Part shown: piece after piece, positions 3,824 to 24,210 of the stretch
Numbering within the stretch: the first letter of the stretch is position 1
Layout: every line of letters starts with the position of its first letter
Program-made: the position numbers and the translations under genes
The notes under the pieces: model-generated
The model's input: only the letters and a program-made list of their open reading frames with translations
Told to the model about the DNA's origin: nothing
Database searches by the model: none
NCBI RefSeq assembly: GCF_008761635.1
Contig: NZ_CP044344.1
Span: 3,720,001-3,784,000, forward strand
DNA from: Nocardioides cynanchi
GTDB taxonomy: Bacteria; Actinomycetota; Actinomycetes; Propionibacteriales; Nocardioidaceae
DNA length: 64,000 nucleotides
Direction: 5' to 3'

Positions 3824-3892
3824 GGCCCGGTCGATGAGGAATGGTGGAACGTGCAAGTTCCGCCGACTTGGCGAGTTCGTTTAGTTGCAGAG

Positions 3893-3912: not shown

Positions 3913-3980
3913 GTGGCTCCGCAGAGCGGGCGGAACGCCCAGATCCACGCCTGTTGATAGAGCTCGGGCGGCGGAAGCTG

Positions 3981-4038
3981 CCTGAGTCTAGATCAGGGAA
4001 TTTTCCTCCGTTCGCGGTCGTTGAAACCAGCAACGACC
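3981..4038. promoter_or_regulatory. Cluster of dyads upstream of the integrase (operator/arm-site candidate)
   Basis: Two dyads lie here: CCTGA-GTCTAGA-TCAGG (3981-3997) and GGTCGTTG-7 nt-CAACGACC (4016-4023/4031-4038, 8 bp perfect). The left half of the first, CCTGAGTCTA, is repeated directly at 4046-4055 just after the second. The set occupies the AT-richer 95 bp before the integrase leader Shine-Dalgarno, so it probably controls int expression or forms part of the recombination complex. Confidence 0.45.
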
Positions 4039-4074
4039 AGCAAACCTGAGTCTACAGAAACCAAGGAGACAACG

Positions 4075-4152
4075 ATGTTGGACCTTTTCAAGACCAACGG
4101 CACCAGCCCCCCGCAGGTGACGGGGGTGAGTCAGGTTGCCCCGCAAGCCTGA
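4075..4152 (+). CDS. 25-codon leader ORF overlapping the integrase start
   Basis: ATG 4075 follows an excellent Shine-Dalgarno (CCAAGGAGACAACG) and encodes MLDLFKTNGTSPPQVTGVSQ plus five residues before TGA 4150. The integrase frame, which has no better signal, starts at TTG 4136 inside it, 17 nt before the leader stop. This looks like translational coupling: ribosomes finishing the leader re-initiate on the weak TTG. Alternatively it could be a frameshifted N-terminus of the integrase. No known family recognised. Confidence 0.45.
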   Translation: MLDLFKTNGTSPPQVTGVSQVAPQA

Positions 4153-7170: not shown

Positions 7171-10100
7171 CCCGAAGATCAGCACCTACCGCGAAGTTGT
7201 CCCGTACATCTACTCGTGGCGCACCCCAGACGTACCGAAGTACGACGGGTGGGAGAAGATCGGGTACACCGAGCAGGAGTCGGCTGACAAGCGCATCAAC
7301 CAGCAGGCATCCCAGCTCAACATCACGAAGATCAAGGTCTGGGCGTACAGGGCGGCGTTCATCACCGAGGACGGCGGGTCGTTCCGCGACAGCGACTTCC
7401 ACGCCTTCCTCAAGCAACAGGGCATCCCACGCGAGTTCGACCCCAACGCCACCCCGCACCGCACGGAGTGGCACAAGTTCGCCGGCGCCCCGAACACCAG
7501 CCAGCAGTACTTCTTCGAGTTCGCCTCGAAATCCTTCACCACACCGCTCGCTGCATCGCAGGACGACTACACGTTGCGGCCCGAGCAGCAGCAGGCGGTC
7601 AGCCAGGCGATGACGGCGTTCGGCCCGCACGGGTCCGGCGAGGTGCTCTGGAACGCGAAGCCGCGATTCGGCAAGACGCTGACGACGTACGACCTGATGC
7701 GGAAGATGGACGTCAAGCGTGCCCTGATCGTCACCAATCGCCCGGCCATCGCCAACTCCTGGTTTGACGACTACCAGCGGTTCATTGGCCACCAGACCAG
7801 CTACCAGTTCGTGTCCGACTCGCCGTCGCTCGCCCAACGCAGCCCGATGACCCGCGAACAGTGGAAGGCGTACTCACTGGAGCAGGTCGACCAGGACCCC
7901 CGCATCATCGATTTCGTCTCGCTCCAGGACCTCAAGGGATCGCAGTACTTCGGCGGCTCCTTCGACAAGCTCAAGCACATCGCGGACGCTGACTGGGACT
8001 TGCTCGTCATCGACGAAGCCCACGAAGGCGTCGACACGACGAAGACCGACGTGGCCTTCAACCAGATCAAGCGCAAGCACACGTTGCACCTGTCGGGCAC
8101 ACCGTTCAAGGCGTTGGCGTCGGGTCGCTTCGGAGAGGACCAGATCTTCAACTGGACCTACGAGAACGAGCAAACGGCCAAGGAGCAGTGGTCCGACGGG
8201 ACGCAGGACAACCCATACGCCCAGCTCCCGACCCTCAACCTGCTGACCTACCAGCTCTCCCGCATGGTCACCGACCGGCTCGCCGAAGGCGTCGCACTCG
8301 ACGAAGAGAAGGGGAACGTCGACTACACGTTCGACCTGGCTGAGTTCTTCTCCACCAAGGACAATGGCTACTTCGTCTACGAAGCTGACGTAGCGCGATT
8401 CCTGGACGCGCTTACGACGCAGGAGAAGTATCCGTTCTCCACCCCGAAGCTGCGTGACGAGATTAGGCACTCGTTCTGGCTGCTCAACCGGGTCGCCTCC
8501 GCCAAGGCGCTGGAGCGGATGCTCAAGAAGCACCCTGTCTTTAGCGAGTACACAGTCATCCTGGCGGCCGGCGACGGCCGGCCCCACACAGACGCCGGTG
8601 ATGGGCTGGACGAGGACGCCGATGACTCAGTGACCGTGGGCAAGTCCCTAGACAAGGTCCGCGCAGCCATCGCGAAGGCGGAGGCCGACGGCGGCAAGAC
8701 GATCACGCTGTCGGTGGGTCAGCTCACGACGGGCGTGACGGTGCCGGAGTGGACGGCGGTCATCATGCTGTCCAACTTGTCTTCGCCGGCTCTCTACATG
8801 CAGGCGGCGTTCCGGTCTCAGAACCAGTGCATGTTCATGCGGGGCGACAAGGTCTACCAGAAGAAGAACGCCTACATCTTCGACTTCGCCCCCGAGCGCA
8901 CGCTGACAATCTTTGACGCGTTCGCGAACAACCTTGCCCCGCACCCACCGATCGATGCCGGTGAGCGCAGGGAGAACATCCGTCGGCTGCTGAACTTCTT
9001 CCCCATCCTGGGCGAGGACACCGAGGGCCGCATGATTGCGCTCGACGCCGCTCAGGTGCTCACGTTCCCGCAGGTGTTTAAGGCCCGTGAGGTCGTTCGG
9101 CGGGGCTTCCTGTCGAACCTCCTGTTCGCGAATGTGTCCGGCATCTTCCGGGCTGTCGAGCACTTCCAGGACATCCTCAACCAGCTCCCCGTCGCCAAGG
9201 AGAAGAAGGTCGAGAAAGGCAAGCCGGTCGAGGTCTCGGTCCCGCCACCGACCACGGACGCAGACGGAAACGTTCAGGTCGACGTCGGCACCGTCATCAA
9301 CCCCAAGGTCGCCGAGCTGGGCAAGCCGGTCTACTCCGACGAGGACGTGCCGCCGCTCGACCCGGCCACGACGAAGGCGGCCGAGGCGGCTAAGCAGATT
9401 GCCGCGATCGTCACAGAGAAGGCGCGCGGGACACGGACCAAGGCCGCGGCCGAGTACGGCATGACAGCCACGCAGATCCAGAACGACGAGAGAGCCACCG
9501 AGGCGCAGGTGAAGGCCAAGGTGGAACGCGCGTACGTCGACCATCAGATCGCGCTCAGCCACATCGACGCCGAAGCCAAGGAAGCGGCGACCGAAGCCGA
9601 GTTCCAGGCGGTCGAGGCGAAGAAGGCCGAGGCGAAGGCCGAACTCGACGCACAGGTGCTCTCAATCTTCCACAACACGCTCGACACCGTCACCGAGACC
9701 GTCGTCAAGCGAGAGGAGACCAAGAAGGCCCAGAAGCAGGTCGACAAGACGATGGATGCGGCCCGCGACCACCTGCGCGGTTTCGCACGGACCATCCCGA
9801 TGTTCCTCATGGCCTATGGCGACCGGAACATCACCCTTGCCAGCTTCGACGACTACACCCCGGACGACGTGTTCCACGAGATCACGGGGATCACCGAGGA
9901 GGACTTCCGCAAGCTCCGCGACGGCCGCGAGGTCTCCGACCCAACGACCGGTGTAGTCACTAAGGTTCCGGGCCTGTTCGATGAGGCAGTGTTCAACCAG
10001 GCGATCCAGGAGTTTCTCAACAAGAAGGACGAGCTCTCCGACTACTTCGACCCCGCGCTCACCGAGGACATCTTCGCGTACATCCCGCAACAGAAGACCT

Positions 10101-10495
10101 CGCTCGTTTTCACGCCGAAGCCGGTCGTGCAGATGATGTGCGACACGCTAGAGGCCGAGAACCCGGGCATCTTCTCCGACCCAGACAAGACGTTCGCCGA
10201 CCTGTTCTCCACCGCCGGCCTGTTCCTGATGGAACTCGTGCGCCGGCTCGACAAGGGTCTGACCAAGACCTTCCCCGACCAGGACGAGCGGCTCCGGCAC
10301 ATACTGACGCGGCAGGTGTTCGAGATGAGCCACAACGAGATACTGCACGACATCACCTTGGAGGCCGTCAGCGGCGGAGTGCCGGATCGTCGAGCCTGGC
10401 TAGAGAATTCTGGGCACTTCCGGGTTGGCAACCTCGCCCGCATGACCCCCGAGGAACGAGAACAGATCGTGGACGACATGCTGGGAGACGACTGA
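7163..10495 (+). CDS. Restriction-type SF2 helicase with GIY-YIG-like N-terminus and methylase C-terminus
   Basis: 1110 aa. Residues about 10-90 read PYIYSW...EKIGYT...DKRINQ, the YIY/KIG(Y)T/Arg pattern of the T5orf172/GIY-YIG nuclease fold. An SF2 motor follows: Walker A AKPRFGKT (165-172), DEAH in LLVIDEAHEG (284-287), SAT-like LHLSGTPFKA, and a C-terminal RecA half with TTGVTVPEW and LYMQAAFRSQNQ. About 760-890 is highly charged helix. The C-terminus (about 969-1110) carries FTPKPVVQMMCDTLE and DLFSTAGLFLMELVRRL, a methyltransferase motif X and a degenerate motif I. So one protein joins putative cleavage, translocation and half of a methylase. ATG 7163 is chosen because the domain begins there and it overlaps the previous stop; the next gene starts 1 nt after its stop. 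Confidence 0.82.
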   Translation: MASPKISTYREVVPYIYSWRTPDVPKYDGWEKIGYTEQESADKRINQQASQLNITKIKVWAYRAAFITEDGGSFRDSDFHAFLKQQGIPREFDPNATPHRTEWHKFAGAPNTSQQYFFEFASKSFTTPLAASQDDYTLRPEQQQAVSQAMTAFGPHGSGEVLWNAKPRFGKTLTTYDLMRKMDVKRALIVTNRPAIANSWFDDYQRFIGHQTSYQFVSDSPSLAQRSPMTREQWKAYSLEQVDQDPRIIDFVSLQDLKGSQYFGGSFDKLKHIADADWDLLVIDEAHEGVDTTKTDVAFNQIKRKHTLHLSGTPFKALASGRFGEDQIFNWTYENEQTAKEQWSDGTQDNPYAQLPTLNLLTYQLSRMVTDRLAEGVALDEEKGNVDYTFDLAEFFSTKDNGYFVYEADVARFLDALTTQEKYPFSTPKLRDEIRHSFWLLNRVASAKALERMLKKHPVFSEYTVILAAGDGRPHTDAGDGLDEDADDSVTVGKSLDKVRAAIAKAEADGGKTITLSVGQLTTGVTVPEWTAVIMLSNLSSPALYMQAAFRSQNQCMFMRGDKVYQKKNAYIFDFAPERTLTIFDAFANNLAPHPPIDAGERRENIRRLLNFFPILGEDTEGRMIALDAAQVLTFPQVFKAREVVRRGFLSNLLFANVSGIFRAVEHFQDILNQLPVAKEKKVEKGKPVEVSVPPPTTDADGNVQVDVGTVINPKVAELGKPVYSDEDVPPLDPATTKAAEAAKQIAAIVTEKARGTRTKAAAEYGMTATQIQNDERATEAQVKAKVERAYVDHQIALSHIDAEAKEAATEAEFQAVEAKKAEAKAELDAQVLSIFHNTLDTVTETVVKREETKKAQKQVDKTMDAARDHLRGFARTIPMFLMAYGDRNITLASFDDYTPDDVFHEITGITEEDFRKLRDGREVSDPTTGVVTKVPGLFDEAVFNQAIQEFLNKKDELSDYFDPALTEDIFAYIPQQKTSLVFTPKPVVQMMCDTLEAENPGIFSDPDKTFADLFSTAGLFLMELVRRLDKGLTKTFPDQDERLRHILTRQVFEMSHNEILHDITLEAVSGGVPDRRAWLENSGHFRVGNLARMTPEEREQIVDDMLGDD

Positions 10496-10496
10496 C

Positions 10497-11531
10497 ATGG
10501 CCAAGAAGTTCGACGTCGTCATCGGTAACCCTCCCTACCAGGAGGAAGCCCAAGGCGAGGGCAAACGCGACACCCCCGTCTACCACCTGTTCATGGACGC
10601 GGCCTACGAGCTAGGGACCAAGGCCGTCCTCATCACCCCGGCACGCTTCCTGTTCAACGCGGGTTTCACGCCGAAGGCTTGGAACGAGAAGATGCTCACC
10701 GACCCGCATCTCACTGTGCCGATCTACGTCCGCGACAGCTCGGAACTGTTTCCGGGCACCAAGATTCGCGCAGGAATCGCCGTGACGTACCGAGACGCGG
10801 AGCGCGCCGCCGAACCTATCGAGACGTTCACGGCCTATCCCGAGTTGAACACGATCCTGCACAAGGTCCGCGAGTCAGGGACAGCGTTCATCGAGTCGCT
10901 TGGGATCACGAGCTCACGTTCTTACCGCTATACGGACAAGCTCTACGACGACCACCCTGAAGCGCGCGCCCTTCGCCCTGAAGGCAACGCTGCGCTGGTC
11001 AACACGAATGCCTTTGAGCAGTTCTCGTTCCTTTATCACGCCGATCCGCCGTCGGACGGTTTCGATTACGTTCAGGTCCTCGGAGTGATCAAGAACAAGC
11101 GGTTTCGCCGTTGGATCCGTAGCGACTACATCGCCGGCCCGGAGAGTTTCGGCAGGTACAAAGTTGCGCTCCCGAAGGCTAACGAGACCAACAAGTTTGG
11201 CTGGATGGCGGCCCCCGAGGTCGTGGAGCCAGGTGTCGCTGTTACCCAGACGTTCCTGACCATCGGCTCGTTCGCGACCGAAGCGGAGGCGAAGGCATGC
11301 TTCGCCTACGTGAAGACGAAGTTCGCCCGAGCCATGCTCTACGTACTCAAGGTGACCCAGGACAACCCTCGCGCCACCTGGAAGTTCGTCCCGGCCCAGG
11401 ACTTCACGACGGCATCAGACATCGACTGGACCAAGTCGATCCCCGAGATCGACGCCCAACTCTGCGAGAAGTACCGCCTTGATCCTGAGGAGACCGCCTT
11501 TGTCGAGGGCAAGGTCGCGTCGATGGAATGA
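10497..11531 (+). CDS. Eco57I-family DNA methyltransferase catalytic/target-recognition subunit
   Basis: 344 aa beginning almost directly with the catalytic motif: KKFDVVIGNPPYQEEAQ (motif IV, NPPY). Then KAVLITPARFLFNAGFTPKAW (motif V/VI region) follows. The C-terminal half is the usual target-recognition/TRD part of the family (KNKRFRRWIRSDYI..., RYKVALPKANETNKFGWM). Motifs X and I are missing from this chain. They occur at the end of the preceding helicase and in the 217-aa protein at 6517. It therefore most likely assembles with one or both of these to methylate adenine-N6. It lies 1 nt after the helicase stop and is the last intact gene of the plus-strand operon. Confidence 0.8.
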   Translation: MAKKFDVVIGNPPYQEEAQGEGKRDTPVYHLFMDAAYELGTKAVLITPARFLFNAGFTPKAWNEKMLTDPHLTVPIYVRDSSELFPGTKIRAGIAVTYRDAERAAEPIETFTAYPELNTILHKVRESGTAFIESLGITSSRSYRYTDKLYDDHPEARALRPEGNAALVNTNAFEQFSFLYHADPPSDGFDYVQVLGVIKNKRFRRWIRSDYIAGPESFGRYKVALPKANETNKFGWMAAPEVVEPGVAVTQTFLTIGSFATEAEAKACFAYVKTKFARAMLYVLKVTQDNPRATWKFVPAQDFTTASDIDWTKSIPEIDAQLCEKYRLDPEETAFVEGKVASME

Positions 11532-11942: not shown

Positions 11943-14900
11943 CTACGGTGCCATGTGGGTCCTTCGGGCCTGGGGGACGTCGGGAGTCGAAACGTAGGCT
12001 TGGCCTACGCTGAGCTTTTCGATCTCTAGGCTGAGATCTTGACCGGTGCGCCCCCGTAGATAGCCGGCGACCTGCTTGCTGGCCGGGAAATTGGTGCGGA
12101 AGACGATCTTGGTGCCCGCATTTCCCACGACATCCTTATGGAAGTCGGCCGCTCCCTGGCTCGCCACGACAATGACTACGCCGTATTTCCTGCCCTCTTT
12201 CATCAGCTTCGGGAGAGTGACGTCCTTCGCCAGACGGTGTGCCTCATCGAGTACGACGGCGAGCTTGAGCTTCCCGTCCTGCGGCCACTGGAACATGTCG
12301 CGGTAGACCTTTCGTAGCAGGAAGGCTCCGGCCGCCAGTTGCACCTGCTCTAGCGTGATGGAGCTGACGTCGATGACCATGCCGCTTGCGCGCGGGTCGA
12401 ACGTGCCAACTGCATCTTCCGCGAACAGCCCGAAGTCGGTTAGCGGCCGGATGCGTTCGCGGGCGTGCTTGCCCTTCGCTGCGGCCTCGATGGCTTCGAG
12501 CTTGTCGGCGAAATGCTCGACTGTGGGCGCCTGCGGAGTCGTGCCGTCGACGACATCTTTGTAGGCCTCCTGAATGGCCTTGTACACGTGCGATTGCTGG
12601 ATTTCTCCCAGACTCGCGACGTAGGCGACTATCTCGGCCGTCTCGAACGCCAAGGAGTTGAGCACCGGGCCTGTCTCGAGGACGCCTTCGAAGGGGCTGA
12701 AGGGGAGCCCGTGGCTGGCGTCGATCACGCTGGCACCCGGTGGCGGGTCGGTGGCCATGTCACCGTGGAAGTCCAACAGCAGCGACGGCAAGCCCGCTTC
12801 GGAGAACGCACGAACGATGCGTCGGGTCGTCACCGACTTGCCCTGTCCAGGTATGCCGACGACGAAGGCGTGCGGGCTGCCCTTAGTGCTCACCGACCAG
12901 ACGACATCGCCTCCCTGACCGTCCTTGCCCAGCACGACGTCCAGCGTCACTGCCGAGGTCGTCGTCGAGGCGGGAGTGAGCTTCAGTTCGGGCTCCGGGA
13001 CAGCTTCAGGTTCGAGTTCAGGGACGGGTTGGGGCTCGGCTCCCGGTTCGGGTTCGGCTTCGGCCCTTGCCTCCGAGCTTGGCGTCGCCGGCGTCTCGTC
13101 GAGCGTTTCGTCCTCGGCGTCCTCGGGGAGCACGAACGCATCGTCGCGCTGCGGGTCGAACTTCGTGGAGAAACCGGCCTGGCCCAGGTCGGCGGCGGTC
13201 AATACGGCGATCGGGACCTGACGGTGCTGCGCCGGGATGCCTGCCGCACCGTGGAGGCTGATGACGTAACCGTGCAAAGAGATCTCCACGGGCGCGCCGG
13301 TCTCGAGATGCCGGTCGATCAGCTTGTGGACACCTGCGAGCTTTTCCGGTGACAGCGTGCCGCTCACCGCGGCCCGCTCGGCGTAGTAGTGCAGCATGCC
13401 GGCGAGCCGCGCACGCTGGAGCGCGGCGTCGACACGCGGGGGGTCGGTCGCGAAGAACCTTGACACCAGCAGGCGCTTGGTCTCCTCGAGCTGGTCGACA
13501 ATGTCGTCGGCGAGCTGTGTTGGGAGCGCCGCCGCCTTACGGGACTTCACCTCGACACACTCGATCCGCAGGCCGTTGCGCAGCACCCGCACCAGCAGGA
13601 GGTCGCACCGTCGCGCCGCATGATCAACTTCGCGTGCTTGCCGTCCAAAGATCTCGTCGTGTGAGTCGACAGGAACGATAATGGTGTCGTCCAGCTTCCT
13701 GCGGGCATCCAGGTGAGCCACGAGGGCGGCAAGGCTCACCGCTTCTCGCGCGAAGGATTCGCTTCCTTGCAGCCTCAGCACGAGGCGGCCGGAGATCGTG
13801 AGCAGCTTGTCGATGACCAGGGTTATCGACTGGTCGAGAGCGTCGAGGCCGAGCTCCTCCATCGCGTGCCCGAGGATTTGGGCGACTTCGGTGCGATGTT
13901 TCGTCGTCACCGTTAGGCGGTGGCTGAGCCCCTCGATGAAGTCCGGGGCGTAGTCGAGCATGTAGCTGTGACTGCCGAGTCCGATCGCGATTGGGTCTTC
14001 GTACAAGTCGAGCCCGACGAAGCGGTCGAGCGTCAGAACCCAGTCCGACAACTCGTGAAGCACGCGGATCGCCTGTAGGCCGTCGGGTTCGATCCCGATC
14101 CGCAACGCCGGAGGGGCGTGCAAGCCGAGTGTGGAGCCGAGCGCTGCCTGATGTGACTTGTGCGTCTCCACGACAGCTCGCCCTGGAGCCTCCGGTGTCG
14201 AGGCCAGCGCCGGTGACGCCAACCAACCCGGTTTGCCATCGACGGCCACTCGCGTCGTGATGACCGGTGTGAGCAGGTCGTGAAATGCCGTGAACCGGTC
14301 CGACCCCTCGTCAACAGCTGGGGCGAGTTCGAGTGTCGCCACATCCTGGATCAGCGCAACGTGGGCGGCACGATCGTCGGTAACGAGCGCCCCTGGCTCA
14401 CGCATCGCGAGCCCGAGGGGTGGCGCCAGGTGGCTCTGACGCCCCGGCACCTGGGCGAGCTGCAGAGTGTGCTGCAGCTGCGCCAGTCGCGGCAGCGGAG
14501 CGGCGAAGCCGGCGTGACGGCCGTAGGCAACGACTTCCACTCGCGGCGGGGCCGCGGATGCAACTTCGTCAGCCGCGGCCGCGACGTCGACGAGCGATTC
14601 GACAGCCAGGCCGAGCACTTCGCCGTCGCCGGGGTTCATCGCAGCGAGGCGAAGTGCCTGCACTTCCGGGTGCGACTGGCGGAAGTCCCTGAGTCGGCTC
14701 GACACCATCTGGGCGACGGAGTCCAGCGCCTTCGATTCGCGCGGCATATCCAAGGCGGCGTAGACGACCGACGCCACCGCTTCGGGGGCAGCGAGATTGG
14801 GCTCGAGGAGGACAGCCGAGCCAAAGGCGACCTCGTCGAAGTAGACGAGGACCTTGCCGTCGGCGTTGGGGCCGGCAAAGGGGAGGTTCGTCGGCCGTAC

Positions 14901-16787
14901 GCGGGCGAAAAGCGCCTCGTCGACCACCAAGCGGCGAGCCTTCGCGCCGCCGAGCGAAACGAGGTCCGTGCACCACGTTTCGACGACACCGTAGTGCGCC
15001 GCGATCCAGCCGAGCCGGAGTGGGTGGATCGGCAACACGACGACGGCCCGCTCGGTGCCGACCGACGTACCCACTTCCAGTGACAGGGTGTCGAGCCGCA
15101 GCAGCGCTTCCCGCAGCGCCCCGTCGGAGGAATCGAGGGCACGCTTGTAGGTCTGCACGTAGTCGAGTGCTGCCTGCCGAGCGGCCGCGTCCCAGCGGAA
15201 GACCTCAGGCACGTCATGGGGAGCGCCCTGCGCGAGAAGCGTGAGAAGCTCCTTGCGCTTCTTGGAGAACGCCAAGGGGAGGTCCCAGCGCTGCACTGTC
15301 ACGTCGGCAGGGTCGATGGGGTCGCCGTACTCGGAGGTCGCCTCTAACGCCGTGACGCTGGGTTCGGCGATCACGCGGCGCTGTAGTTGCACCAGGATCG
15401 GTGCGATTCGCACCTGTGCCCCCAGGTGCTTCCCGATCCGTACCGAGAAGACCCGACCGCCGAAGTCCCACGCCTGCATGTCGACGTCGGTGTTCAAGGC
15501 ACCGGAGAGCACCGCGTGCAGCTGGGCCTCCGCCAAGGAGCCCGCTGAAGGTTGGCGGGTCAGCCGTTCCGCTAGTGACTCCTCGAAGATGACTTCGAAT
15601 TGGTCACTGTCCCTGACCGCCGGCGTCCCGTCTGTGAGCAGCATCGGGGTGCCGTTGGCGTCGAGTGCGGTGATGCGAACGACGAACAATGCGCCCGCCG
15701 CGAGGTCGTCGGCACCCAGCTCAAGTTTCAGGGTGGCGGACAGGCGTGTGCCCTTGATCTTGGTCTCGAGCGTGGAGGGAGTACCGTCATCGCGGAGGTC
15801 CTCCGGTGGCAGGAGTTCGAGAAGCCAGTTTGCGACGTCGCTTGGCTTGCCCGGCCGAGTCTTCCACCGGAGTCCGATCGAGCTCGGGTTGTCCTGTGAC
15901 GTCTGCACGAAGAGGGCTCCGTCGTCCGTCGCCTGTAGCTTGCTGAAGGCCTCTACGCCGCCGTCCGGTTTGGTGAAACTGTCTAGCTGAAGATCAATGA
16001 GCGCGGACTCGACCTCGCTATCGAGTGGTATGCCGGCGAGGGTGATGCCGTGTTCCTCGAACAGCTTGCGCGTCCAGCCGATCGTGTCGCGGAGATCGGC
16101 GACCGCGGGATTAAGCACCCCGACCAGCTTCTCGAATACCTCTCCCTGGGCGACGCGAGCCTTGCGCAGTCGCTCGCGGACCGTCGCGGTCGCCACGGCA
16201 GGCCTAGCCACCTGGGCGACCAGATCGGCATTGCGATCCAGATTGGCTCGCAGCTGCGGCGGCTCCGACGTGTCGACGATGAGACCGACCCGCCACAACT
16301 CCTTTCCGAAGTCGGCGGAGTCTTCGGACTCCAGCACCGCTGCCAGGAAGTCGAGCCTTGCCTCGATCGGCACGCGCGACCTCCGCAGCACGAGCGTGAC
16401 GGGCAGTTCCGGCCAGCGAGATGCGACTTCGTGCTTGAGGCGCGTTGCGACCTCCTCCAGCTCTCGGACGAGGGGGAGACGTTCGAACGAGTTGTCCAGG
16501 GAGCTCGCAGCATGGGCCAGGCCGGGCGGGACCATCAGAACGAAGGCGTGGGTCTTGTCGTTGCGGATGCCGACCGCGGACTCGACCGTCACGGCGTCTT
16601 CCTGGTCTTGCACAGCAAGTACAGCGATCCGTACCTTGGCTGCGTCGACCTCCTGCCGGACGAGCGCGGCCAGTGCGAAGGCGTCCTCCTCGAGGATGTC
16701 GTCGACGCGGACACAGTGGCCCGCCTCGGCGCCCCGCACCGAGGCGACGATCCGGGAGGCGAGCGCCTCGAGCACTCGGCTTCTCAT
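11943..16787 (-). CDS. Giant HerA/FtsK-type ATPase, MAD8-like defence protein
   Basis: 1614 aa. The first 1200 residues match no fold I recognise: mixed alpha/beta with many acidic helices. A Pro/Glu-rich linker (EAEPEPGAEPQPVPELEPEA region) leads to a C-terminal HerA/FtsK motor. The motor has Walker A GIPGQGKS (1311-1318), DFHGDM, Walker B VVLDEAHRLA (D1514/E1515) and ASQGAADFHKDVVGNAGTKI (sensor/arginine region), ending in a region with NFPASKQVAGYLRG. Such ATPases translocate DNA or feed it to nucleases. Size and architecture fit MAD8 of MADS; DptH of phosphorothioate-dependent restriction has the same plan. The ATG overlaps the upstream stop (ATGA). Last gene of the operon. Confidence 0.78.
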   Translation of the reverse strand: MRSRVLEALASRIVASVRGAEAGHCVRVDDILEEDAFALAALVRQEVDAAKVRIAVLAVQDQEDAVTVESAVGIRNDKTHAFVLMVPPGLAHAASSLDNSFERLPLVRELEEVATRLKHEVASRWPELPVTLVLRRSRVPIEARLDFLAAVLESEDSADFGKELWRVGLIVDTSEPPQLRANLDRNADLVAQVARPAVATATVRERLRKARVAQGEVFEKLVGVLNPAVADLRDTIGWTRKLFEEHGITLAGIPLDSEVESALIDLQLDSFTKPDGGVEAFSKLQATDDGALFVQTSQDNPSSIGLRWKTRPGKPSDVANWLLELLPPEDLRDDGTPSTLETKIKGTRLSATLKLELGADDLAAGALFVVRITALDANGTPMLLTDGTPAVRDSDQFEVIFEESLAERLTRQPSAGSLAEAQLHAVLSGALNTDVDMQAWDFGGRVFSVRIGKHLGAQVRIAPILVQLQRRVIAEPSVTALEATSEYGDPIDPADVTVQRWDLPLAFSKKRKELLTLLAQGAPHDVPEVFRWDAAARQAALDYVQTYKRALDSSDGALREALLRLDTLSLEVGTSVGTERAVVVLPIHPLRLGWIAAHYGVVETWCTDLVSLGGAKARRLVVDEALFARVRPTNLPFAGPNADGKVLVYFDEVAFGSAVLLEPNLAAPEAVASVVYAALDMPRESKALDSVAQMVSSRLRDFRQSHPEVQALRLAAMNPGDGEVLGLAVESLVDVAAAADEVASAAPPRVEVVAYGRHAGFAAPLPRLAQLQHTLQLAQVPGRQSHLAPPLGLAMREPGALVTDDRAAHVALIQDVATLELAPAVDEGSDRFTAFHDLLTPVITTRVAVDGKPGWLASPALASTPEAPGRAVVETHKSHQAALGSTLGLHAPPALRIGIEPDGLQAIRVLHELSDWVLTLDRFVGLDLYEDPIAIGLGSHSYMLDYAPDFIEGLSHRLTVTTKHRTEVAQILGHAMEELGLDALDQSITLVIDKLLTISGRLVLRLQGSESFAREAVSLAALVAHLDARRKLDDTIIVPVDSHDEIFGRQAREVDHAARRCDLLLVRVLRNGLRIECVEVKSRKAAALPTQLADDIVDQLEETKRLLVSRFFATDPPRVDAALQRARLAGMLHYYAERAAVSGTLSPEKLAGVHKLIDRHLETGAPVEISLHGYVISLHGAAGIPAQHRQVPIAVLTAADLGQAGFSTKFDPQRDDAFVLPEDAEDETLDETPATPSSEARAEAEPEPGAEPQPVPELEPEAVPEPELKLTPASTTTSAVTLDVVLGKDGQGGDVVWSVSTKGSPHAFVVGIPGQGKSVTTRRIVRAFSEAGLPSLLLDFHGDMATDPPPGASVIDASHGLPFSPFEGVLETGPVLNSLAFETAEIVAYVASLGEIQQSHVYKAIQEAYKDVVDGTTPQAPTVEHFADKLEAIEAAAKGKHARERIRPLTDFGLFAEDAVGTFDPRASGMVIDVSSITLEQVQLAAGAFLLRKVYRDMFQWPQDGKLKLAVVLDEAHRLAKDVTLPKLMKEGRKYGVVIVVASQGAADFHKDVVGNAGTKIVFRTNFPASKQVAGYLRGRTGQDLSLEIEKLSVGQAYVSTPDVPQARRTHMAP

Positions 16788-18433
16788 TCGCCCTCCCTCA
16801 AGTTGACCAGCGGGTTGAGAACCCGCTGGGCGCTAAGGTCGTCGCTTAGGCCTTCGAAGACGCCGAGCAGCTGAAGCCGATACTTGAAGGCCTCAAGGTT
16901 GTGCGCCGCAGCCGCCCGGTTCTCCGCCGAGTCCAGCCCTGCCGGCGGCCGATCGACCAAGAGCCCGAACCGACTCTGGAGCTGATCGAGCACGTCGCGG
17001 ATCGGGAGTTCGGCGAGGGCGGGTCCGCCTCCTGAGCGGGCGAAGATGACCGCGAGGAGCGACGCCAGCAGCTTGTCCGACGGCGCGTATGTCCATGACG
17101 GCCGCGCCTTGAGTGCACCTGCCAGGATGCCAACGTCGGTCTTGATTCCGCCGGTCGACCAGAACCACTTGAACGCGTTCTCGTAGCCCCGCTTCTTCAG
17201 TGCCTCGACGAGCACGTCGGTGAGCCGGTCGGCGATCGGCCTGGAGTCTGCGGCCATCGCGGCGAGGAACGGCGTCGTGTCCTCGTCGTCCGTCTGCGTG
17301 TTCTCCTGCTCGACCAGTGAGAAGAGGTATTCCAGGTGGGCCTCGACTTTGGGCGCTTCCTTCGACCTTGCGAGCTGAGCTAACTTCTCCGCAGCGCTGG
17401 TCGCGTCGTCCTCGAAGATCGGCTTGGAGACCGGGGCGGTGCGCATCGACAGCAGGTAGAGGCGATCCCAAAAGAACTGCCGAGTGACCTCAAGGTCCCG
17501 CTGCACGCATTCACGAGCCAGTAGGTCCGACTGCGATCCCTTGTCACCGGTAAAGTCAACGTACTGCTCCAGCGGATTCGAGGCGGAGGGCCCGGCCATG
17601 TCGGCGGTGAGTTCCCCTTCGGTCTCAATCAGGGCACGGGTGGCAAGAGCTGAGCGCAACGGCAGCTGGAAGAGCCGCAGGCCGATGATGGCGGCGAGGT
17701 GTTGAGACATCACTAGGGCGGGCGCTCGATCACCGTACGCCTGGATGTAGTCGAGGACGTCGGTCCCCAATGGCCGTGTTGCCGCCGGGACCGGCGAGTC
17801 GATGGCGAGGTCCTTGTCGGGCGACGCTGTCTTCTCCTCGAACTCCTCCAGGAAGTACAGGGAAAGCAGGGCTGTGATGTCGAGGTCCGCGGCGCCGTCG
17901 TACGACGGTCCCCACTTCGGCGGGTCGCTGAAGTCCACGCCGCGCCCAAAGGCGGTCTTGAACCGCTCATGGATCCACGTCTTCGCCTTGCCCTCGCCGT
18001 CTTCCGGGCGACGAGCCATCGCTTCACGCAGCAGCTCGCGGTAGACGATCAGGTCGGCGCCGCGGTGCCGGCTGCGAGATGGGAACCCTGCACGGAAGAC
18101 GGCGACCGTCGTGGGGCGGAAATACTGCATCTGCTCAGTTGCGCGGCTGAGGCCAGCTCGGCCCATCTCGACGACCGATGCCCGTAGCCAGCCGTCTAGG
18201 ACGGCCTGACCGCGGCCGTCACCGAAGCCGACGAGACGGTTACTGCGGCCGAGCGCGGCGCGCTTCTCGTCGTACTGCTTGGCGGCAGCGAGATTGGTTG
18301 CGGTCCGCCCCTGCTTGATGGCCATCTCGAATATCTGGGTGAGCATGCGCTCGACGTCAGTGTCGTTAGTGTCGACGACGGTGAGCTCACGGAACGTGAA
18401 CGTGCGGAGGTTCTTCGGCAGGTCGACCTTCAT
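16784..18433 (-). CDS. 549-aa defence protein of unknown fold, MAD7-like
   Basis: No nucleotide-binding or catalytic motif is visible. The N-terminus is MKVDLPKNLRTFTFRELTVV, then RSNRLVGFGDGRGQAVLDGWL, a segment resembling a small beta/loop core followed by helices. The rest is almost wholly helical and acidic, as in a scaffold or adaptor. It sits between the kinase and the HerA ATPase with ATGA overlaps on both sides, so all three are made in concert. In MADS, MAD7 occupies the same place with about this length; I assign it mainly on position and size. It lacks the P-loop expected of DptF. Confidence 0.6.
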   Translation of the reverse strand: MKVDLPKNLRTFTFRELTVVDTNDTDVERMLTQIFEMAIKQGRTATNLAAAKQYDEKRAALGRSNRLVGFGDGRGQAVLDGWLRASVVEMGRAGLSRATEQMQYFRPTTVAVFRAGFPSRSRHRGADLIVYRELLREAMARRPEDGEGKAKTWIHERFKTAFGRGVDFSDPPKWGPSYDGAADLDITALLSLYFLEEFEEKTASPDKDLAIDSPVPAATRPLGTDVLDYIQAYGDRAPALVMSQHLAAIIGLRLFQLPLRSALATRALIETEGELTADMAGPSASNPLEQYVDFTGDKGSQSDLLARECVQRDLEVTRQFFWDRLYLLSMRTAPVSKPIFEDDATSAAEKLAQLARSKEAPKVEAHLEYLFSLVEQENTQTDDEDTTPFLAAMAADSRPIADRLTDVLVEALKKRGYENAFKWFWSTGGIKTDVGILAGALKARPSWTYAPSDKLLASLLAVIFARSGGGPALAELPIRDVLDQLQSRFGLLVDRPPAGLDSAENRAAAAHNLEAFKYRLQLLGVFEGLSDDLSAQRVLNPLVNLREGE

Positions 18434-21400
18434 GCGTTCGCGCCTTCCCGTGTGATGACGCCATCGACGATCTTGATGGCATCGGGGCGCCCGGCTGGGT
18501 CGACCACTTGGACGCGATGGGCCGGAGTCGTCCGCAGCACGTTGCCGAACGCGCTTAGCTCCAGCTTCACCGCATCGGAGCCGGCGTCGCCGAGGATCTC
18601 GCCCTCGGCCGCGCGCCGGACAAGCTCGTAGGAGTCGAGCGTCAGCACGATGGTGCCAAGTGCGTGCGACAGCTTGAGACCGTCGGGCTGCTGTTCGACG
18701 TATGTCGCGTCCGTTGGGAGCGGCTCGAGTGTGAACTCCTCTGCCGGGATTTCGCGAAGGACCGACCAGCCGGCACTTTCGCCGTCAAGCAGGGCGAGCG
18801 CGGATCCTCGGTAACCGTGCGCCCCGAGCACGCGGCTGAGTCCGAGCAGGACTTTGGCAAGCACGAACTCAATGTCCTCACGCCCGTCAAGGACGCCGAC
18901 GAACTCGTCGAAGAACCGGTACGCCCGAACCTCGCCGCGGCCCACGCCGCTCTGCCCGGCGCCATCGAAGAAGAGCTGCCGCTTCTCTGAGCCCGGACGG
19001 CGTCCGCCATCGAGGACGAACCTGCCGTCGCGCAGCGCACGCTCGACGCCAGGGGCGCTCAACAGGTCTGGGTCGACGGTCGCCCACTCGGCGACGAGGT
19101 AGTCCTGGTTGCCTGCGTCGAAAGCGACGTCGAAGACCCGGGAGTCGTCCGTCATCCGCAGGTCGCGCCCGTCTGCGAGCGCGGCGTGGATGTCTTCGCA
19201 GCCTCGGTCGCCGGTGATCGTCCAGGCGATGGCTGACCGAACGTCGCGAAAGGTCGCTCGACGCTTGCGGCGCAGGTGCGAGATCGACACTAGTTCCAGT
19301 AGCGGGCTCTTGCCCGCCTCGCGCAGCAGGTTCCGGTTAGCGAGAATCGGACACACGCCTCGAGCTGTACACGTCCGGCAGTCGGTCCACAGCGCCGGAG
19401 CCACGAACGAATCGAGGACGGCGCCTGCCAGCCCGTGGTCGTCAGGCGCGGTGGGTGCCACGGACCGGCGCTTGAGGTCCACGATCGCGATCCTGGGCGT
19501 GTCGGTTGGTTGGCCCTGCGAGTAGCGGCTCACCGCGACATAGCAGTCCGGGAAGACGTCTTGGTGGGCCACGAAGAAGTTGAGAAGCCTGCCGTCATTG
19601 ATCGCGACGAGGGCGGTGTGTTCGGCATCGCCCATCAGCGCCTCGCTGAGGATCTCGTCAGACGTCTTCCCGTCACGCGCCTCGCTTGCGTCGTAGACCG
19701 CGGCGTACGTGCGGCTGCCGCGCTTCATTCGCCAGCCCGCCGCCGTCGGCTCCACGACGTCGTGAGCGCCTGTCTCGAACAGATACTCGCGCAGCGTGTA
19801 TAGGTAGGAGGTCTTGCCGTCCCCTGGGTTGCCGGTCAGGAGGACGACGTCGAGTTCGCCGGCCAGCACGCTCGGAGTGAGGCGGGTGTCGAGCCGGGTC
19901 TCGACATATGTGTGTCGTGCGAACTCGTCGTCGAGTCCGCGGTTGCCGGCGTTGCCCACGGCGCTCCCGCGATATAGCCGACGCAGGCTGAGCACGGTCG
20001 GGTTGATAGCCTCGCGGCCCTCCTCGACCTTTGCAGCGGCGACCGTCTTGAGGTACGCCGCGAAGCTCGCGGCAGTCACCGGATCGCCGTCCAGGAGCCG
20101 GTCTTGAGGACTTAGTGCCACCAACTTGAAAAGCGCATTCGCGACTGCGGCGCCGGTTGGGCCCCAAGTCTCCTCTTCCTCGGCGGTCAGTGGATCGAGC
20201 TCGTTCTTATCCCAATCCCTGAACGGCGGCCGGCCGAGCATCGCATGGAGCAGGCTCGCTCCGAGTGCGTACAAGTCAGCGGACACCGACCAGTTTCCGG
20301 TTGCTACCTCGGGGGCCATGTACCAGGGAGTCCCCACAACAGAATGCGCGTCGGCTCGGGCGACCGAGAGCCCGAAGTCGATCAGGACTCCATGGCCGTC
20401 GTCGCGCACGACGATGTTGTTGGGCGAGATGTCGCGGTGCAGCTGGCCTTCGTCGTGAAGGTAGGCAAGCGCTTCCAGAATGTCCAGAGCGATCTTGCGG
20501 TAATCCTCCTCTGTCGCCGTACGCTCCTGACCCAGCTCCTTCAGGGTTCGGCCCGCGATGTAGTCCGATACTAAGTAGACGGGCGGCACCGGTGAGAAGT
20601 CCCAGACCCGCGCACAGCGCGGGTGGTGCAGTTTCGCCGCCGCTTCAAACTCCAATTGCGCATTCGCTACCGCCTCGGCCGCGTGATACTGCTTGATGAC
20701 GCGCTGAGCGTTCACCTGGGTGTCGGTCGCCAGCCACGAGGACGCGAAGCCGCCTTGACCGAGCATGCGCTCGATGCGCCAGCGCCCGTTCGGCCCGACG
20801 GCATTGCCGACGGCGAACAAGTCAAGTGGCCCCTCCTCGCCACTAGCGCCTGGCGCCGCGGGTGGAGTACCGGGTGGTGACGGCGGTGGCGGCGGCTGGA
20901 GGAGCTCCCGCAGCTTCGCTGCGACCTCTGCTGCCTCGGGGCGGTCGGCCAGCTCGTCGGCCAGGCATTCGGCGAGGAGCTGAGTGACGGCGTCGAGTTG
21001 GGCGACGGCAGACGCAGCCGCCTTGATCACAGCGGAATCCTTGACGGCTACATCTCCGTTGATCCACCACAGCAGGGTCAGCGCGAGGGAGTAGACGTCT
21101 GCTTTCGGGGACGCCCCGCCGATGAACTGGGCGACTTCGGGCGCGCGGAAGGGGACCGAACCGTCGACGGTGTCGGCCACGATCGGTCCGACTGTGACCT
21201 GACTATCTGCATGTGCGAGGTAGAAGTCGCGGAAAAGGACCCGGTCGTTCTTGCCGACCAGGACGCGTTCAGGCATCAGGCCGCGGTGCGCGACCCCTGT
21301 CTGGTGCACCTCGGCGAGGGCGTCGAAAGCGTCGAGGACGATCCCGGCGGCCCGCTCGGTGAGGCCGTGGCCGCGCTTGACGTCGAGCTTGCCTGCAGCG

Positions 21401-22239
21401 GCGTGGCGGGCGAGAGAGACGCTCGGGATCGGCCGCGTCGGGAGGACGATCCAGCGCCGAACCTCATCGACGAACGTCGCCTCGACCGGCCAGGAGCGCT
21501 GGATGTCAGCGATCTTCTTCGTGGCCTGGCGCTCGTGCGTCACGAGCTGCTGCACGTCGATGCCTAGTCCCCAGCCGTCCATCGGGTACGCCCGCAGCAG
21601 TGCGGGATCGCCATCGCTGTCCTTGGCGTAGAACACGCGCGAGCGTCCTACACCCTCGACCTCCGATTCGACATCGAACGGTCCGAGCTTCAACGGCTTG
21701 GTCTCCCGCACACTCAGTCCGCTGACGAAGTCGATCACCTTGTGGCGGATCTGCTGGAAGCCGGTGACGCCGCTATCGGCGTGCTGCAAGACCTCGGCGG
21801 CTTCCGAGAGCGGGAGGATCTGGTCGTCGTCGTACGGGTAATTACTGGTGTCGAGATCAAGTTTTGGATGCGAAAGAACAACTCGCGCTTCGACAAGGTG
21901 GCTCCCCTTGGCGGCCGCGCTGTAACCAGGAATCGCGCTCTTGAGTACACCGGCGAGGATCTTGGCGACCTGGCTGTTGCGGCCGATGGGGCTCTGCCGA
22001 AGCTCACCCTTAACCAGCCAGCCGCCATTCTCGACCTGGATGGCGGGACCCCAATGCTTCTGCTCAAGCACGAAGACGCGGTTGGCCCCGACGACGAGCA
22101 GGTCGATGTCGTCCTTCTGTGGCGTCGGCAGGGCTCGGCCCGCAACGATTACCCAATCGGCGGGCAACTCGGACGCCAAGGTCTCGGCGGTATCCCGCTC
22201 ACCCGGGCCTACATAGGAGTAGACGACTAGCTCAGCCAC
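18430..22239 (-). CDS. NERD-pseudokinase-kinase-P-loop signalling protein, MAD6/PglW-like
   Basis: 1269 aa, domains in order. (1) NERD nuclease-like, about 10-110, with D46 and E59-x-K61 (DIDLLVV...LEQK) intact. (2) Kinase fold, about 190-445, degenerate: HRD reads HRG (318-320) and DFG reads DFY (338-340), though APE remains. (3) Pro-rich linker 449-465. (4) Active-looking Ser/Thr kinase, about 485-735: LGQGGFASSW, K516, HRD 601-603, DFG 621-623, APE. (5) C-terminal part with P-loop GNPGDGKT (803-810) and a CxxC-x5-C cluster (954/957/963). BREX PglW and MADS MAD6 are large NERD-kinase proteins; the length and the neighbours favour MAD6. GTG start; 8-nt overlap with the helicase gene upstream. 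Confidence 0.8.
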   Translation of the reverse strand: MAELVVYSYVGPGERDTAETLASELPADWVIVAGRALPTPQKDDIDLLVVGANRVFVLEQKHWGPAIQVENGGWLVKGELRQSPIGRNSQVAKILAGVLKSAIPGYSAAAKGSHLVEARVVLSHPKLDLDTSNYPYDDDQILPLSEAAEVLQHADSGVTGFQQIRHKVIDFVSGLSVRETKPLKLGPFDVESEVEGVGRSRVFYAKDSDGDPALLRAYPMDGWGLGIDVQQLVTHERQATKKIADIQRSWPVEATFVDEVRRWIVLPTRPIPSVSLARHAAAGKLDVKRGHGLTERAAGIVLDAFDALAEVHQTGVAHRGLMPERVLVGKNDRVLFRDFYLAHADSQVTVGPIVADTVDGSVPFRAPEVAQFIGGASPKADVYSLALTLLWWINGDVAVKDSAVIKAAASAVAQLDAVTQLLAECLADELADRPEAAEVAAKLRELLQPPPPPSPPGTPPAAPGASGEEGPLDLFAVGNAVGPNGRWRIERMLGQGGFASSWLATDTQVNAQRVIKQYHAAEAVANAQLEFEAAAKLHHPRCARVWDFSPVPPVYLVSDYIAGRTLKELGQERTATEEDYRKIALDILEALAYLHDEGQLHRDISPNNIVVRDDGHGVLIDFGLSVARADAHSVVGTPWYMAPEVATGNWSVSADLYALGASLLHAMLGRPPFRDWDKNELDPLTAEEEETWGPTGAAVANALFKLVALSPQDRLLDGDPVTAASFAAYLKTVAAAKVEEGREAINPTVLSLRRLYRGSAVGNAGNRGLDDEFARHTYVETRLDTRLTPSVLAGELDVVLLTGNPGDGKTSYLYTLREYLFETGAHDVVEPTAAGWRMKRGSRTYAAVYDASEARDGKTSDEILSEALMGDAEHTALVAINDGRLLNFFVAHQDVFPDCYVAVSRYSQGQPTDTPRIAIVDLKRRSVAPTAPDDHGLAGAVLDSFVAPALWTDCRTCTARGVCPILANRNLLREAGKSPLLELVSISHLRRKRRATFRDVRSAIAWTITGDRGCEDIHAALADGRDLRMTDDSRVFDVAFDAGNQDYLVAEWATVDPDLLSAPGVERALRDGRFVLDGGRRPGSEKRQLFFDGAGQSGVGRGEVRAYRFFDEFVGVLDGREDIEFVLAKVLLGLSRVLGAHGYRGSALALLDGESAGWSVLREIPAEEFTLEPLPTDATYVEQQPDGLKLSHALGTIVLTLDSYELVRRAAEGEILGDAGSDAVKLELSAFGNVLRTTPAHRVQVVDPAGRPDAIKIVDGVITREGANA

Positions 22240-23863
22240 GATCAGGAATCCCGTCGTACTGGTCGGGCCACAGCCACCGGCGCACGTAAGTCTCGTCCGT
22301 GCTGAGGATCTTGAGATAGCTATTGTCGCGGGTGTAGGTGACGAGGAGCTGGTCCTTAGCCCGGGTCGCGCCCACGAAGGCCGCTCGGCCCACCCTTACC
22401 GCATCGCCGTCGGCGGGATCAAAGGCCGGGAGGGTGTCGAGGCCGAAGAGGAAGACGACCGGGAACTCGTGGCCCTTCGCCGAGTGAGGCGTGATGATCT
22501 TGACCGTGTTCGTCGTGCGGTCGAACGCCTTCTTATCGTCCTTAGACATGACCGCCGTGTAGGGGATCTCTAACGCGTCAAGCGCGGGCCTGATCTGACC
22601 GATCAAGCCCTTGTACCTGGGAATGACAACGGCCATGTCGCCCGGCTCGCGATCTCCGCTGGACCGCATCAGGTGGGCCTCCCACGCGATCGCGGCCGCT
22701 TGCTCAGCTGGGGAAGCAGCCCAGATCAGGTCGACGGGCTCGCCGTCCGGTGCCTGATCCATCGAGGCGACCGTGAATTCGTCGTTGAGGCCCCCGACGG
22801 CCCCAAGGATGCTGCGGGTGCTGCGGTAAGGCCGACTGAGATGTAGCTCCTCGACCCCGCGTTCCTTGATGACCCTCGGGAGATCATTGTCGCCATAAAG
22901 TGATTGGGCCTTGTCACCAGCCATCACCATGCCACCCCGGCTGGGTTCCAGTCCTTCATACACGATCGCGAGCCATGACTGGTTGAAGTCCTGAACCTCG
23001 TCAAGGAGCACGGCTTCGGCGATGGGCCGCCTTCCGCTCAGTCTCGCCTGTGCGAGATTCCGGCTGTTCGCTGCCTCGTTGGTGAAAGAGAACTGGACCC
23101 CGAACTCGGAGGCGAAGGGCCACATCGTCGTCACCTCGACATTGCCGTAGCCCGCCACCAGGCTCTTGAGGTACGGCACCAGCGCGTTATTGAAACAGAG
23201 AAACTTGATCCGCCAATCCGGGTGGTGCTCGGACAGCCACCGTGCTCGAGCGGCGAGCACCAGTGTCTTGCCGCTGCCCGGCGGCCCCTGCACGCGCGCG
23301 ACGTCGATGTCGTCACGCTGCGCAATCGAAGCCTGCGCGGCATCGAGCGTGACCCGCAGCCTCTCGCGCTCCTCAGCACCCTCGTCATGAGCGCCACGAC
23401 GGAAAGTCGTCTCAAACGTGAACGTCGGCTCCAGCAGCTCGGCGATCGCAGCAGCGAGCTCCTCGTCGAGAGGCTGGGCTGGGACGGCTGTTAGCCAGGC
23501 CAGATCGATCAGTTGGGCGGGACCGATGCTCGTGCGTCCGCCAACCCCGAGGGTTGGCTCGGGGAGTTCGCGGTGGGGATTCAGCACCACCCGCCCGACA
23601 GGGGTTGCCGCGTCCAGCCGCAGAGTCTGGCGCAACGTGTGCACCTTCTCGTTGAGACGGAGGAAGGGAGCGGGATCGCCCACATCGACTCCCGACTCAT
23701 CGATGTCGACCGCCACAAGGCCGATCTCTGGGTGGAGCACCACGAGGCTCGGCTCGCCTTCGCCCGCAAGCAGGACCGCCCGGCCGCCAGTATCCACGAG
23801 CTGGCTGGTAAGCGTGTGGACCACAGTCTGAGCGTCGATCGTGGCGGCCGAACTTGTCGCCAT
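22232..23863 (-). CDS. UvrD-like SF1 helicase with degenerate NERD-like N-terminus
   Basis: 543 aa, first gene of the defence operon. Helicase motifs: Walker A QGPPGSGKT, motif II LLDEVQDFNQSWL, III GDKAQSLYG, IV-like RPYRSTRSI, V TPHSAKGHEFPVVFLFG, VI VGATRAKDQLLV. The first about 170 residues contain SLVVLHPEIGLVAVDIDESG, which lines up with the NERD core (VVLHPExGLLVxEVKG) but has lost the E-x-K catalytic pair. ATG 23863 lies 9 nt after GGAGG; TTG 23872 and GTG 23869 are possible alternatives. MADS as I know it does not include this helicase, so it may be a lineage-specific addition. Confidence 0.8.
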   Translation of the reverse strand: MATSSAATIDAQTVVHTLTSQLVDTGGRAVLLAGEGEPSLVVLHPEIGLVAVDIDESGVDVGDPAPFLRLNEKVHTLRQTLRLDAATPVGRVVLNPHRELPEPTLGVGGRTSIGPAQLIDLAWLTAVPAQPLDEELAAAIAELLEPTFTFETTFRRGAHDEGAEERERLRVTLDAAQASIAQRDDIDVARVQGPPGSGKTLVLAARARWLSEHHPDWRIKFLCFNNALVPYLKSLVAGYGNVEVTTMWPFASEFGVQFSFTNEAANSRNLAQARLSGRRPIAEAVLLDEVQDFNQSWLAIVYEGLEPSRGGMVMAGDKAQSLYGDNDLPRVIKERGVEELHLSRPYRSTRSILGAVGGLNDEFTVASMDQAPDGEPVDLIWAASPAEQAAAIAWEAHLMRSSGDREPGDMAVVIPRYKGLIGQIRPALDALEIPYTAVMSKDDKKAFDRTTNTVKIITPHSAKGHEFPVVFLFGLDTLPAFDPADGDAVRVGRAAFVGATRAKDQLLVTYTRDNSYLKILSTDETYVRRWLWPDQYDGIPDRG

Positions 23864-23979
23864 CGCCACCAACCTCCCAGACGTCAGTCACCGTGTGCGG
23901 GCCCAGGCTAAGCGATCCTCACGTGGCGCGGGCGACATCCGGGCGATGCTCGGCTCCAGAAGCCTTCCGCCAGATCAGT

Positions 23980-24000: not shown

Positions 24001-24210
24001 AATCGGATGTCGAACCCCCTCCACGGTCTTCCAGCCAACTCCAATCCTTCGCGATTCTGAGCGTGAATCGTGGACTGAATTCGGCCGATCTCGACCCTGA
24101 ATCGAAATTCAAAGTCAGGCGGGCCCTGCCGGCAGACCAACCGGGGATCGGTGCTCAAGGTTAGAGCCCGCCCGACGGGGCAGCACGTCGACCACCCGCG
24201 AGATCAGCCT

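What the first reader, a model, noticed from the sequence alone, without database searches (positions are those of the whole stretch)
11943..23863. MAD6-7-8-like core without MAD1-5, led by an SF1 helicase: a possible new defence system
Seen: four co-directional genes with 4-8-nt overlaps encode an SF1 helicase, a 1269-aa NERD/double-kinase/P-loop protein, a 549-aa protein without motifs and a 1614-aa protein ending in a HerA/FtsK motor. Known: MADS has eight genes, with kinase MAD6, MAD7 and ATPase MAD8 adjacent and of about these sizes; PglW of BREX and DptH share parts. Inference: this is either a minimal/variant MADS or a separate system that has replaced MAD1-MAD5 by a helicase and a nearby R-M module.
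Basis: partly seen in the sequence, partly recalled or inferred. Interest (0 to 1): 0.85.

Follow-up and report, generated by a model that had tools for sequence, protein, structure and literature searches.

The report
Kinase-armed DndFGH operon with added helicase
This four-gene operon is a relative of a known bacterial anti-virus DNA-cutting machine (DndFGH, also the core of the MADS system) that has gained its own DNA helicase and carries no DNA-marking genes, so how it spares its own DNA is an open and testable question.

Summary
In detail: four overlapping minus-strand genes (11943-23872) encode an SF1 helicase, a NERD/double-kinase/P-loop protein, a 549-aa protein and a 1614-aa HerA/FtsK protein. 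Kinase and MAD7 pass the NCBIfam MADS cut-offs (461.1/460 and 450.5/410); MAD8 does not (36.7/175). It is not a MADS: MAD2 and MAD5 are absent genome-wide from all nine class genomes with this MAD7 type and present in all six with canonical MADS. Underneath MAD6-7-8 lies DndFGH/SspFGH: the kinase C-terminus matches SspF, the modelled MAD7 superposes on crystal DndG (Z 21; next 3.3), and MAD8 carries a conserved PD-(D/E)XK motif plus a HerA motor, as in DndH/SspH. Stand-alone DndFGH, including NERD-pseudokinase-kinase-DndF, was described in 2024 (PMC10853773). New here: kinase-G-H recurs in about 35 Actinomycetota and Chloroflexota loci with no other conserved neighbour. A UvrD-type helicase directly precedes it in 15 (one gain, two losses fit the tree). 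In a 395-genome sample that helicase never occurs without the triad. The nearby R-M module is not conserved. Likely function: a modification-gene-free, kinase-controlled, translocating anti-invader nuclease with a helicase subunit. Defence was not tested.

The parts
22232..23872 (-). Helicase gene (546 aa): N-terminal NERD-like stretch without the catalytic Lys, then a UvrD/PcrA-type SF1A helicase with all motifs intact
   Evidence: Pfam UvrD_C 2.6e-14; profile matches PcrA/UvrD (6e-34) and GajB in the PDB; motifs G196-T203, D291-D295, G319-Q323, Y349RST352, T461-F470, V500-L509 conserved in 13 rows
18430..22239 (-). Kinase gene (1269 aa), MAD6-like: NERD nuclease, pseudokinase, active Ser/Thr kinase, DndF/SspF-type P-loop domain
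   Evidence: NCBIfam MADS6 461.1 bits, cut-off 460; PADLOC SspF on residues 746-1269, E 3.5e-18
21865..22200 (-). NERD domain of the kinase protein (residues 14-125), catalytic E14, D46, E59-x-K61 kept
   Evidence: Pfam NERD 1.1e-10; residue conservation
20890..21672 (-). Pseudokinase (residues 190-450): HR[G/A] in place of HRD
   Evidence: kinase profiles match; degenerate motif in all rows of the alignment
20170..20790 (-). Active-type kinase (residues 484-690): G494/G496, K516, E530, H601-x-D603, N608, D621-F-G623 conserved
   Evidence: Pfam Pkinase 1.3e-45
18430..20004 (-). DndF/SspF-type P-loop kinase with lid (residues 746-1269): Walker A G803-T810, ND motif N881-D882, Cys cluster C954/C957/C963
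   Evidence: PADLOC SspF 63.6 bits, DndF weak; conserved residues
16784..18433 (-). MAD7-like gene (549 aa): DndG fold, predicted DNA-binding/target-recognition subunit
   Evidence: NCBIfam MADS7 450.5 bits, cut-off 410; AlphaFold pLDDT 91.1, pTM 0.91; Foldseek DndG 7exx E 1.5e-5; VIA Z 21.0 over 400 residues, next Z 3.3
11943..16787 (-). MAD8-like gene (1614 aa): DndH/SspH-type protein with nuclease motif and HerA/FtsK motor
   Evidence: PADLOC DndH 5.3e-19, mad8 1.4e-18; NCBIfam MADS8 36.7 bits, below cut-off 175
13488..13685 (-). PD-(D/E)XK nuclease motif region of the MAD8-like protein (residues 1035-1100): D1062 ... E1079-x-K1081
   Evidence: conserved in 31 of 32 homologues; SspH weak match; model resembles PD-(D/E)XK nucleases, Z 4-6
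11970..12965 (-). HerA/FtsK translocase domain (residues 1275-1606): Walker A G1314-S1318, D1514-E1515, R1533, sensor Q1544
   Evidence: Pfam DUF87 and HerA_C; conservation; PDB HerA, TrwB, weak DptH 7es4

Best explanation
A stand-alone, modification-gene-free DndFGH/SspFGH-type anti-invader complex in which the F subunit is fused to a NERD nuclease, a pseudokinase and an active Ser/Thr kinase, and which in this lineage has gained an SF1 helicase as a fourth gene. SHOWN by sequence or model: family identity of F, G and H, conserved catalytic residues, conserved gene order, helicase-triad association, absence of linked modification genes. INFERRED: F, G and H assemble on DNA; G (DndG fold) and the N-terminal part of H recognise DNA; the HerA motor of H translocates and its PD-(D/E)XK domain nicks or cuts; the kinase, with the pseudokinase as regulator and the P-loop as nucleotide sensor, restrains or triggers the complex instead of a protective DNA mark; the helicase unwinds or loads onto invader replication or end structures to open substrate for H; NERD is a second or back-up nuclease.
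For: F: residues 746-1269 match SspF at E 3.5e-18, with the ND motif and a Cys cluster like the Zn insert that PMC10853773 gives for DndF. G: MADS7 over cut-off, DndG crystal structure Z 21 with the next hit at 3.3. H: DndH 5.3e-19 and mad8 1.4e-18, nuclease motif in 31 of 32, HerA residues. Unit: triad in all related loci whose contigs reach far enough, no other recurrent neighbour except Thermogemmatispora synteny. Helicase: directly upstream in 12 of 32 loci with upstream sequence, plus own, G161 and G212; at E <= 1e-40 only 4 of 395 genomes carry it, all with the triad. MAD2/MAD5 absent, dndC absent in all 15 genomes searched. DndFGH is a translocating nickase complex (PMC11662687) and SspFGH damages unmodified DNA (PMC8092258).
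Against: No phage or plasmid test exists for this lineage. DndFGH and SspFGH are toxic to cells lacking the matching modification, so a modification-free version needs another safeguard, not shown here. Every variant genome tested has some DNA methyltransferase elsewhere, so an unlinked mark is not excluded. The nuclease fold rests on the motif plus weak structural matches. The helicase is missing from more than half of the triads, so it is an accessory, not essential to the core.
Confidence: 0.6

Rival explanations
1. A degraded or minimal MADS that lost mad1-mad5 and would work with methylation from elsewhere.
For: Kinase and MAD7 pass the MADS6 and MADS7 cut-offs; same gene order as mad6-7-8.
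Against: MAD2 and MAD5: 6 of 6 canonical genomes, 0 of 9 variant genomes. Canonical MADS and all variant loci fall on two sides of one fully supported branch, the variants spanning two phyla. Catalytic residues are intact, with no sign of decay.
Confidence: 0.08
2. The complex uses DNA methylation by an unlinked or neighbouring methyltransferase as self mark; in this genome the Eco57I-type enzyme at 7079-11531 would be the candidate.
For: FGH modules in Dnd and Ssp need a mark (PMC8092258, PMC11662687). Each of nine variant genomes has at least one DNA methyltransferase domain.
Against: The R-M pair is in none of the 35 related loci, is on the other strand, and a 69% relative was found in a viral contig. 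Among the variant genomes searched, N6_Mtase is only marginal in the own genome, and Eco57I, N6_N4_Mtase and DNA_methylase are each missing from at least one.
Confidence: 0.15
3. Abortive infection: the kinase and NERD nuclease are the effectors, killing the cell on sensing invader DNA, while G and H are only the sensor.
For: Active kinase and NERD residues conserved. PMC10853773 and PMC12839542 propose suicidal back-up roles for such fusions.
Against: H keeps its own nuclease motif and the FGH relatives act on invader DNA.
Confidence: 0.15

Closest known systems
Stand-alone DndFGH with NERD-pseudokinase-kinase fusion on DndF (Rakesh, Aravind, Krishnan 2024, PMC10853773)
   Same: F with NERD, inactive and active kinase before the P-loop core; G; H with REase and HerA/FtsK; decoupled from modification genes
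   Different: The helicase gene: text searches of that paper for UvrD and SF1 found no such partner. Here F is closer to the SspF than to the DndF profiles
MADS (MAD1-MAD8; Maestri et al. 2024, doi 10.1016/j.chom.2024.07.005, paper not held)
   Same: MAD6, MAD7 and MAD8 homologues in the same order
   Different: No MAD2 or MAD5 in the genome, no MAD1-5 in the loci; only about 25% identity in the kinase; MAD8 below cut-off; helicase added
SspABCD-SspFGH (PMC8092258)
   Same: F, G and H profiles match
   Different: No sulfur-modification gene of the DndC type in the genome; kinase and NERD fused to F; helicase
BREX type 2 PglW
   Same: NERD-pseudokinase-kinase order (PMC12839542)
   Different: C-terminal part is DndF/SspF-like, not the PglW one; no other BREX gene recognised in the flanks of the window operon
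Gabija GajB / PADLOC C3a187 (NERD+UvrD)
   Same: UvrD-type helicase family
   Different: Partnered with FGH, not with GajA

Membership tests
MADS | MAD6 kinase homologue over the NCBIfam cut-off | tested here: met
   461.1 bits against 460, marginal
MADS | MAD7 homologue over the cut-off | tested here: met
   450.5 against 410
MADS | MAD8 homologue over the cut-off | tested here: not met
   36.7 against 175; PADLOC mad8 C-terminal match 65 bits
MADS | MAD2 methyltransferase in the genome | tested here: not met
   no hit in the own genome; 0 of 9 variant and 6 of 6 canonical genomes over cut-off
MADS | MAD5 specificity subunit in the genome | tested here: not met
   no hit in the own genome; 0 of 9 against 6 of 6 over cut-off
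MADS | MAD1, MAD3, MAD4 | tested here: inconclusive
   no non-kinase, non-MAD7 cluster shared between canonical and variant flanks; not searched genome-wide
DndFGH/SspFGH | F: P-loop kinase with ND motif and lid | tested here: met
   SspF 63.6 bits, E 3.5e-18; N881-D882 and Cys cluster conserved
DndFGH/SspFGH | G: DndG fold (triple winged helix) | tested here: met
   DndG 7exx Z 21.0, rmsd 6.6, 400 residues; Foldseek E 1.5e-5
DndFGH/SspFGH | H: REase plus HerA/FtsK | tested here: met
   structural support for the nuclease weak
DndFGH/SspFGH | H: N-terminal SNF2 remnant, TRDs, dead methyltransferase | not tested
   N-terminal 884 residues gave no PADLOC hit and were not modelled
Dnd/Ssp with phosphorothioation | dndC-type sulfur-transfer gene | tested here: not met
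   no TIGR03183 match in any of 15 genomes
Any defence system | protection against phage or plasmid | not testable with these tools
   needs an experiment

The most novel reading that the evidence does not exclude
A distinct four-subunit DndFGH subtype in which a dedicated SF1 helicase and a kinase switch replace DNA modification as the basis of self/non-self discrimination: the helicase makes or selects the structure (fork, end or unwound DNA) on which the translocating nuclease acts, and phosphorylation holds the complex silent on host DNA.
Probability: 0.3. Interest if true: 0.72.

Novelty: new variant of a known kind. Interest (0 to 1): 0.52.

Why it matters
Characterised FGH modules poison cells that lack the matching DNA mark (PMC8092258, PMC11662687). 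A widespread FGH lineage with no linked marking genes, a fused kinase and an extra helicase makes two open questions testable: how a translocating nuclease spares host DNA without a mark, and what a kinase does in such a complex. It also links two named systems: the MAD6-7-8 core of MADS and DndFGH/SspFGH look like the same machine coupled to different marking modules or to none.

Tried and rejected
The PADLOC mad2 profile against the own genome gave 60 hits, mostly at one profile region, and rang in all 14 control genomes; the NCBIfam MAD2 model was used instead. The MADS paper is not held. PDB sequence search with the MAD7 and MAD8-nuclease alignments found nothing useful; the MAD7 relative appeared only by fold. 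Foldseek for the nuclease region had no significant hit (best FokI, E 0.019); VIA matches were Z 6.3 or lower, so the nuclease claim rests mainly on the conserved motif. MAD7 search in plasmids and viral contigs found no relative, so there is no evidence that the system is carried there. In one search my gene caller missed the G212 helicase; one search corrected this. The methyltransferase census was inconclusive for an unlinked self mark. No att repeat pair was found between the island ends. Literature searches found no paper joining MADS with Dnd FGH proteins or an SF1 helicase with DndFGH; subscription papers and supplements were not readable.

Full report
WHAT IS THERE. The window lies in a closed 4.0-Mb, GC-rich genome. 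Four overlapping minus-strand genes run helicase (22232-23872), kinase (18430-22239), MAD7-like (16784-18433), MAD8-like (11943-16787) with 8-, 4- and 4-nt overlaps. Their third-position GC (0.79-0.82) is below that of the genes to the right (about 0.95), as are a tyrosine-recombinase gene, a D5-type helicase gene and an R-M pair to the left: probably an acquired island.

FAMILY IDENTITY. NCBIfam puts MAD7 (450.5 bits, cut-off 410) and the kinase (461.1, cut-off 460) in MADS families, but the MAD8-like protein scores only 36.7 against 175. PADLOC adds DndH and mad8 for the HerA end and SspF for kinase residues 746-1269 (E 3.5e-18). The MAD7 model (pLDDT 91, pTM 0.91) has one significant Foldseek match in the PDB, the crystal structure of DndG, and VIA-align gives Z 21.0 (rmsd 6.6) over 400 of 440 residues, the next entry being 3.3. 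MAD6-7-8 is therefore kinase-fused F, G and H of the DndFGH/SspFGH kind.

ACTIVE SITES. Across 32 kinase homologues the NERD residues (E14, D46, E/D59-x-K61) and the second kinase (K516, H601-x-D603, N608, D621-F-G623) are kept, while the first kinase has HR[G/A] for HRD; the P-loop (G803-T810), an ND motif and a Cys cluster follow. The MAD8-like protein carries D1062...E1079-x-K1081 in 31 of 32 homologues, a PD-(D/E)XK signature; the modelled region resembles HamA, McrC and Hjc nucleases only weakly (Z 4-6). HerA motifs are conserved. The helicase keeps every SF1A motif and is closest to PcrA/UvrD and GajB; its N-terminus looks NERD-like but lacks the catalytic lysine.

NOT MADS. Six class genomes with high-scoring MAD7 carry MAD2 and MAD5 near it; the nine with this variant, own genome included, carry neither over cut-off anywhere. 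A kinase plus MAD7 tree separates the groups with full support (quick method, long branches present, unrooted). dndC is absent from all 15 genomes.

RECURRENCE. A profile scan of 84,980 genomes found 35 loci in Actinomycetota and Chloroflexota. Kinase-MAD7-MAD8 is kept wherever the contig reaches; no other family recurs widely in the flanks except Thermogemmatispora synteny. The helicase is directly upstream in 12 of 32 loci with upstream sequence; a Kineosporia locus shares 80-90% identity over all four genes. In 395 class genomes the helicase family (E <= 1e-40) occurs in four, all with the triad; by random draw among nine triad genomes that has p about 1e-7 (my arithmetic, lineages treated as independent). 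Three changes of helicase state explain the tree, for example one gain and two losses.

WHAT IT WORKS LIKE. DndFGH nicks and translocates, held off by phosphorothioation (PMC11662687); SspFGH damages unmodified DNA and is toxic without its mark (PMC8092258). PMC10853773 proposed stand-alone DndFGH and already lists the NERD-pseudokinase-kinase fusion. A phage kinase is reported to switch DndFGH off by phosphorylation (cited in PMC11662687), so a built-in kinase as safety or trigger is plausible but inferred. The role of the helicase (opening or choosing the substrate) is inferred from its motifs and its exclusive association with the triad.

LIMITS. No defence assay exists. Each variant genome has some DNA methyltransferase, so an unlinked self mark is not excluded. 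The MADS paper and supplements of the Dnd paper could not be read, so the helicase association or the MADS-DndFGH link may be recorded there.

Noticed in passing
window 7079-11531 (+): R-M pair: a ResIII/SNF2-type helicase protein that ends with methyltransferase motif I, followed after 1 nt by a 344-aa protein starting at motif IV (NPPY). The same two-gene split occurs in a 69% relative in a viral contig (L103 near 8370), so the split methyltransferase looks natural, not a frameshift.
   Followed up: partly
window 24107-24147 (-): Exact 41-nt 5' half of tRNA-Gln(TTG), ending in the anticodon loop, at the right border of the island; relatives of the genus have the intact tRNA a few kb upstream of glmU. 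The 3' half was not found in the window or 8 kb to its left, so the left border is unknown.
   Followed up: partly
window 1892-5419 (+): D5-type helicase gene and tyrosine recombinase at the left of the island; PMC10853773 reports D5 helicases with tyrosine recombinases in mobile operons from which some DndH motors were captured.
   Followed up: no
L028, L035 and L033 (G161, G142, G243): Next to the triad in three genomes lies a conserved cluster of a IIG-type methyltransferase and a DruE-like protein of about 2000 aa, with a further large protein, possibly a separate Druantia/DISARM-like system.
   Followed up: no
L062 and L063: Nearly identical four-gene systems in Nonomuraea and Microbispora with mostly different flanks: recent horizontal transfer.
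   Followed up: no
L076: Chloroflexota MAD8 homologue that has lost the D...ExK nuclease motif.
   Followed up: no
own genome C1:2970270-2975129 (L007): 1648-aa open frame with a long weak match to the PADLOC mad2 profile and weak N6_Mtase/Eco57I matches: probably another large R-M enzyme, not MAD2.
   Followed up: partly
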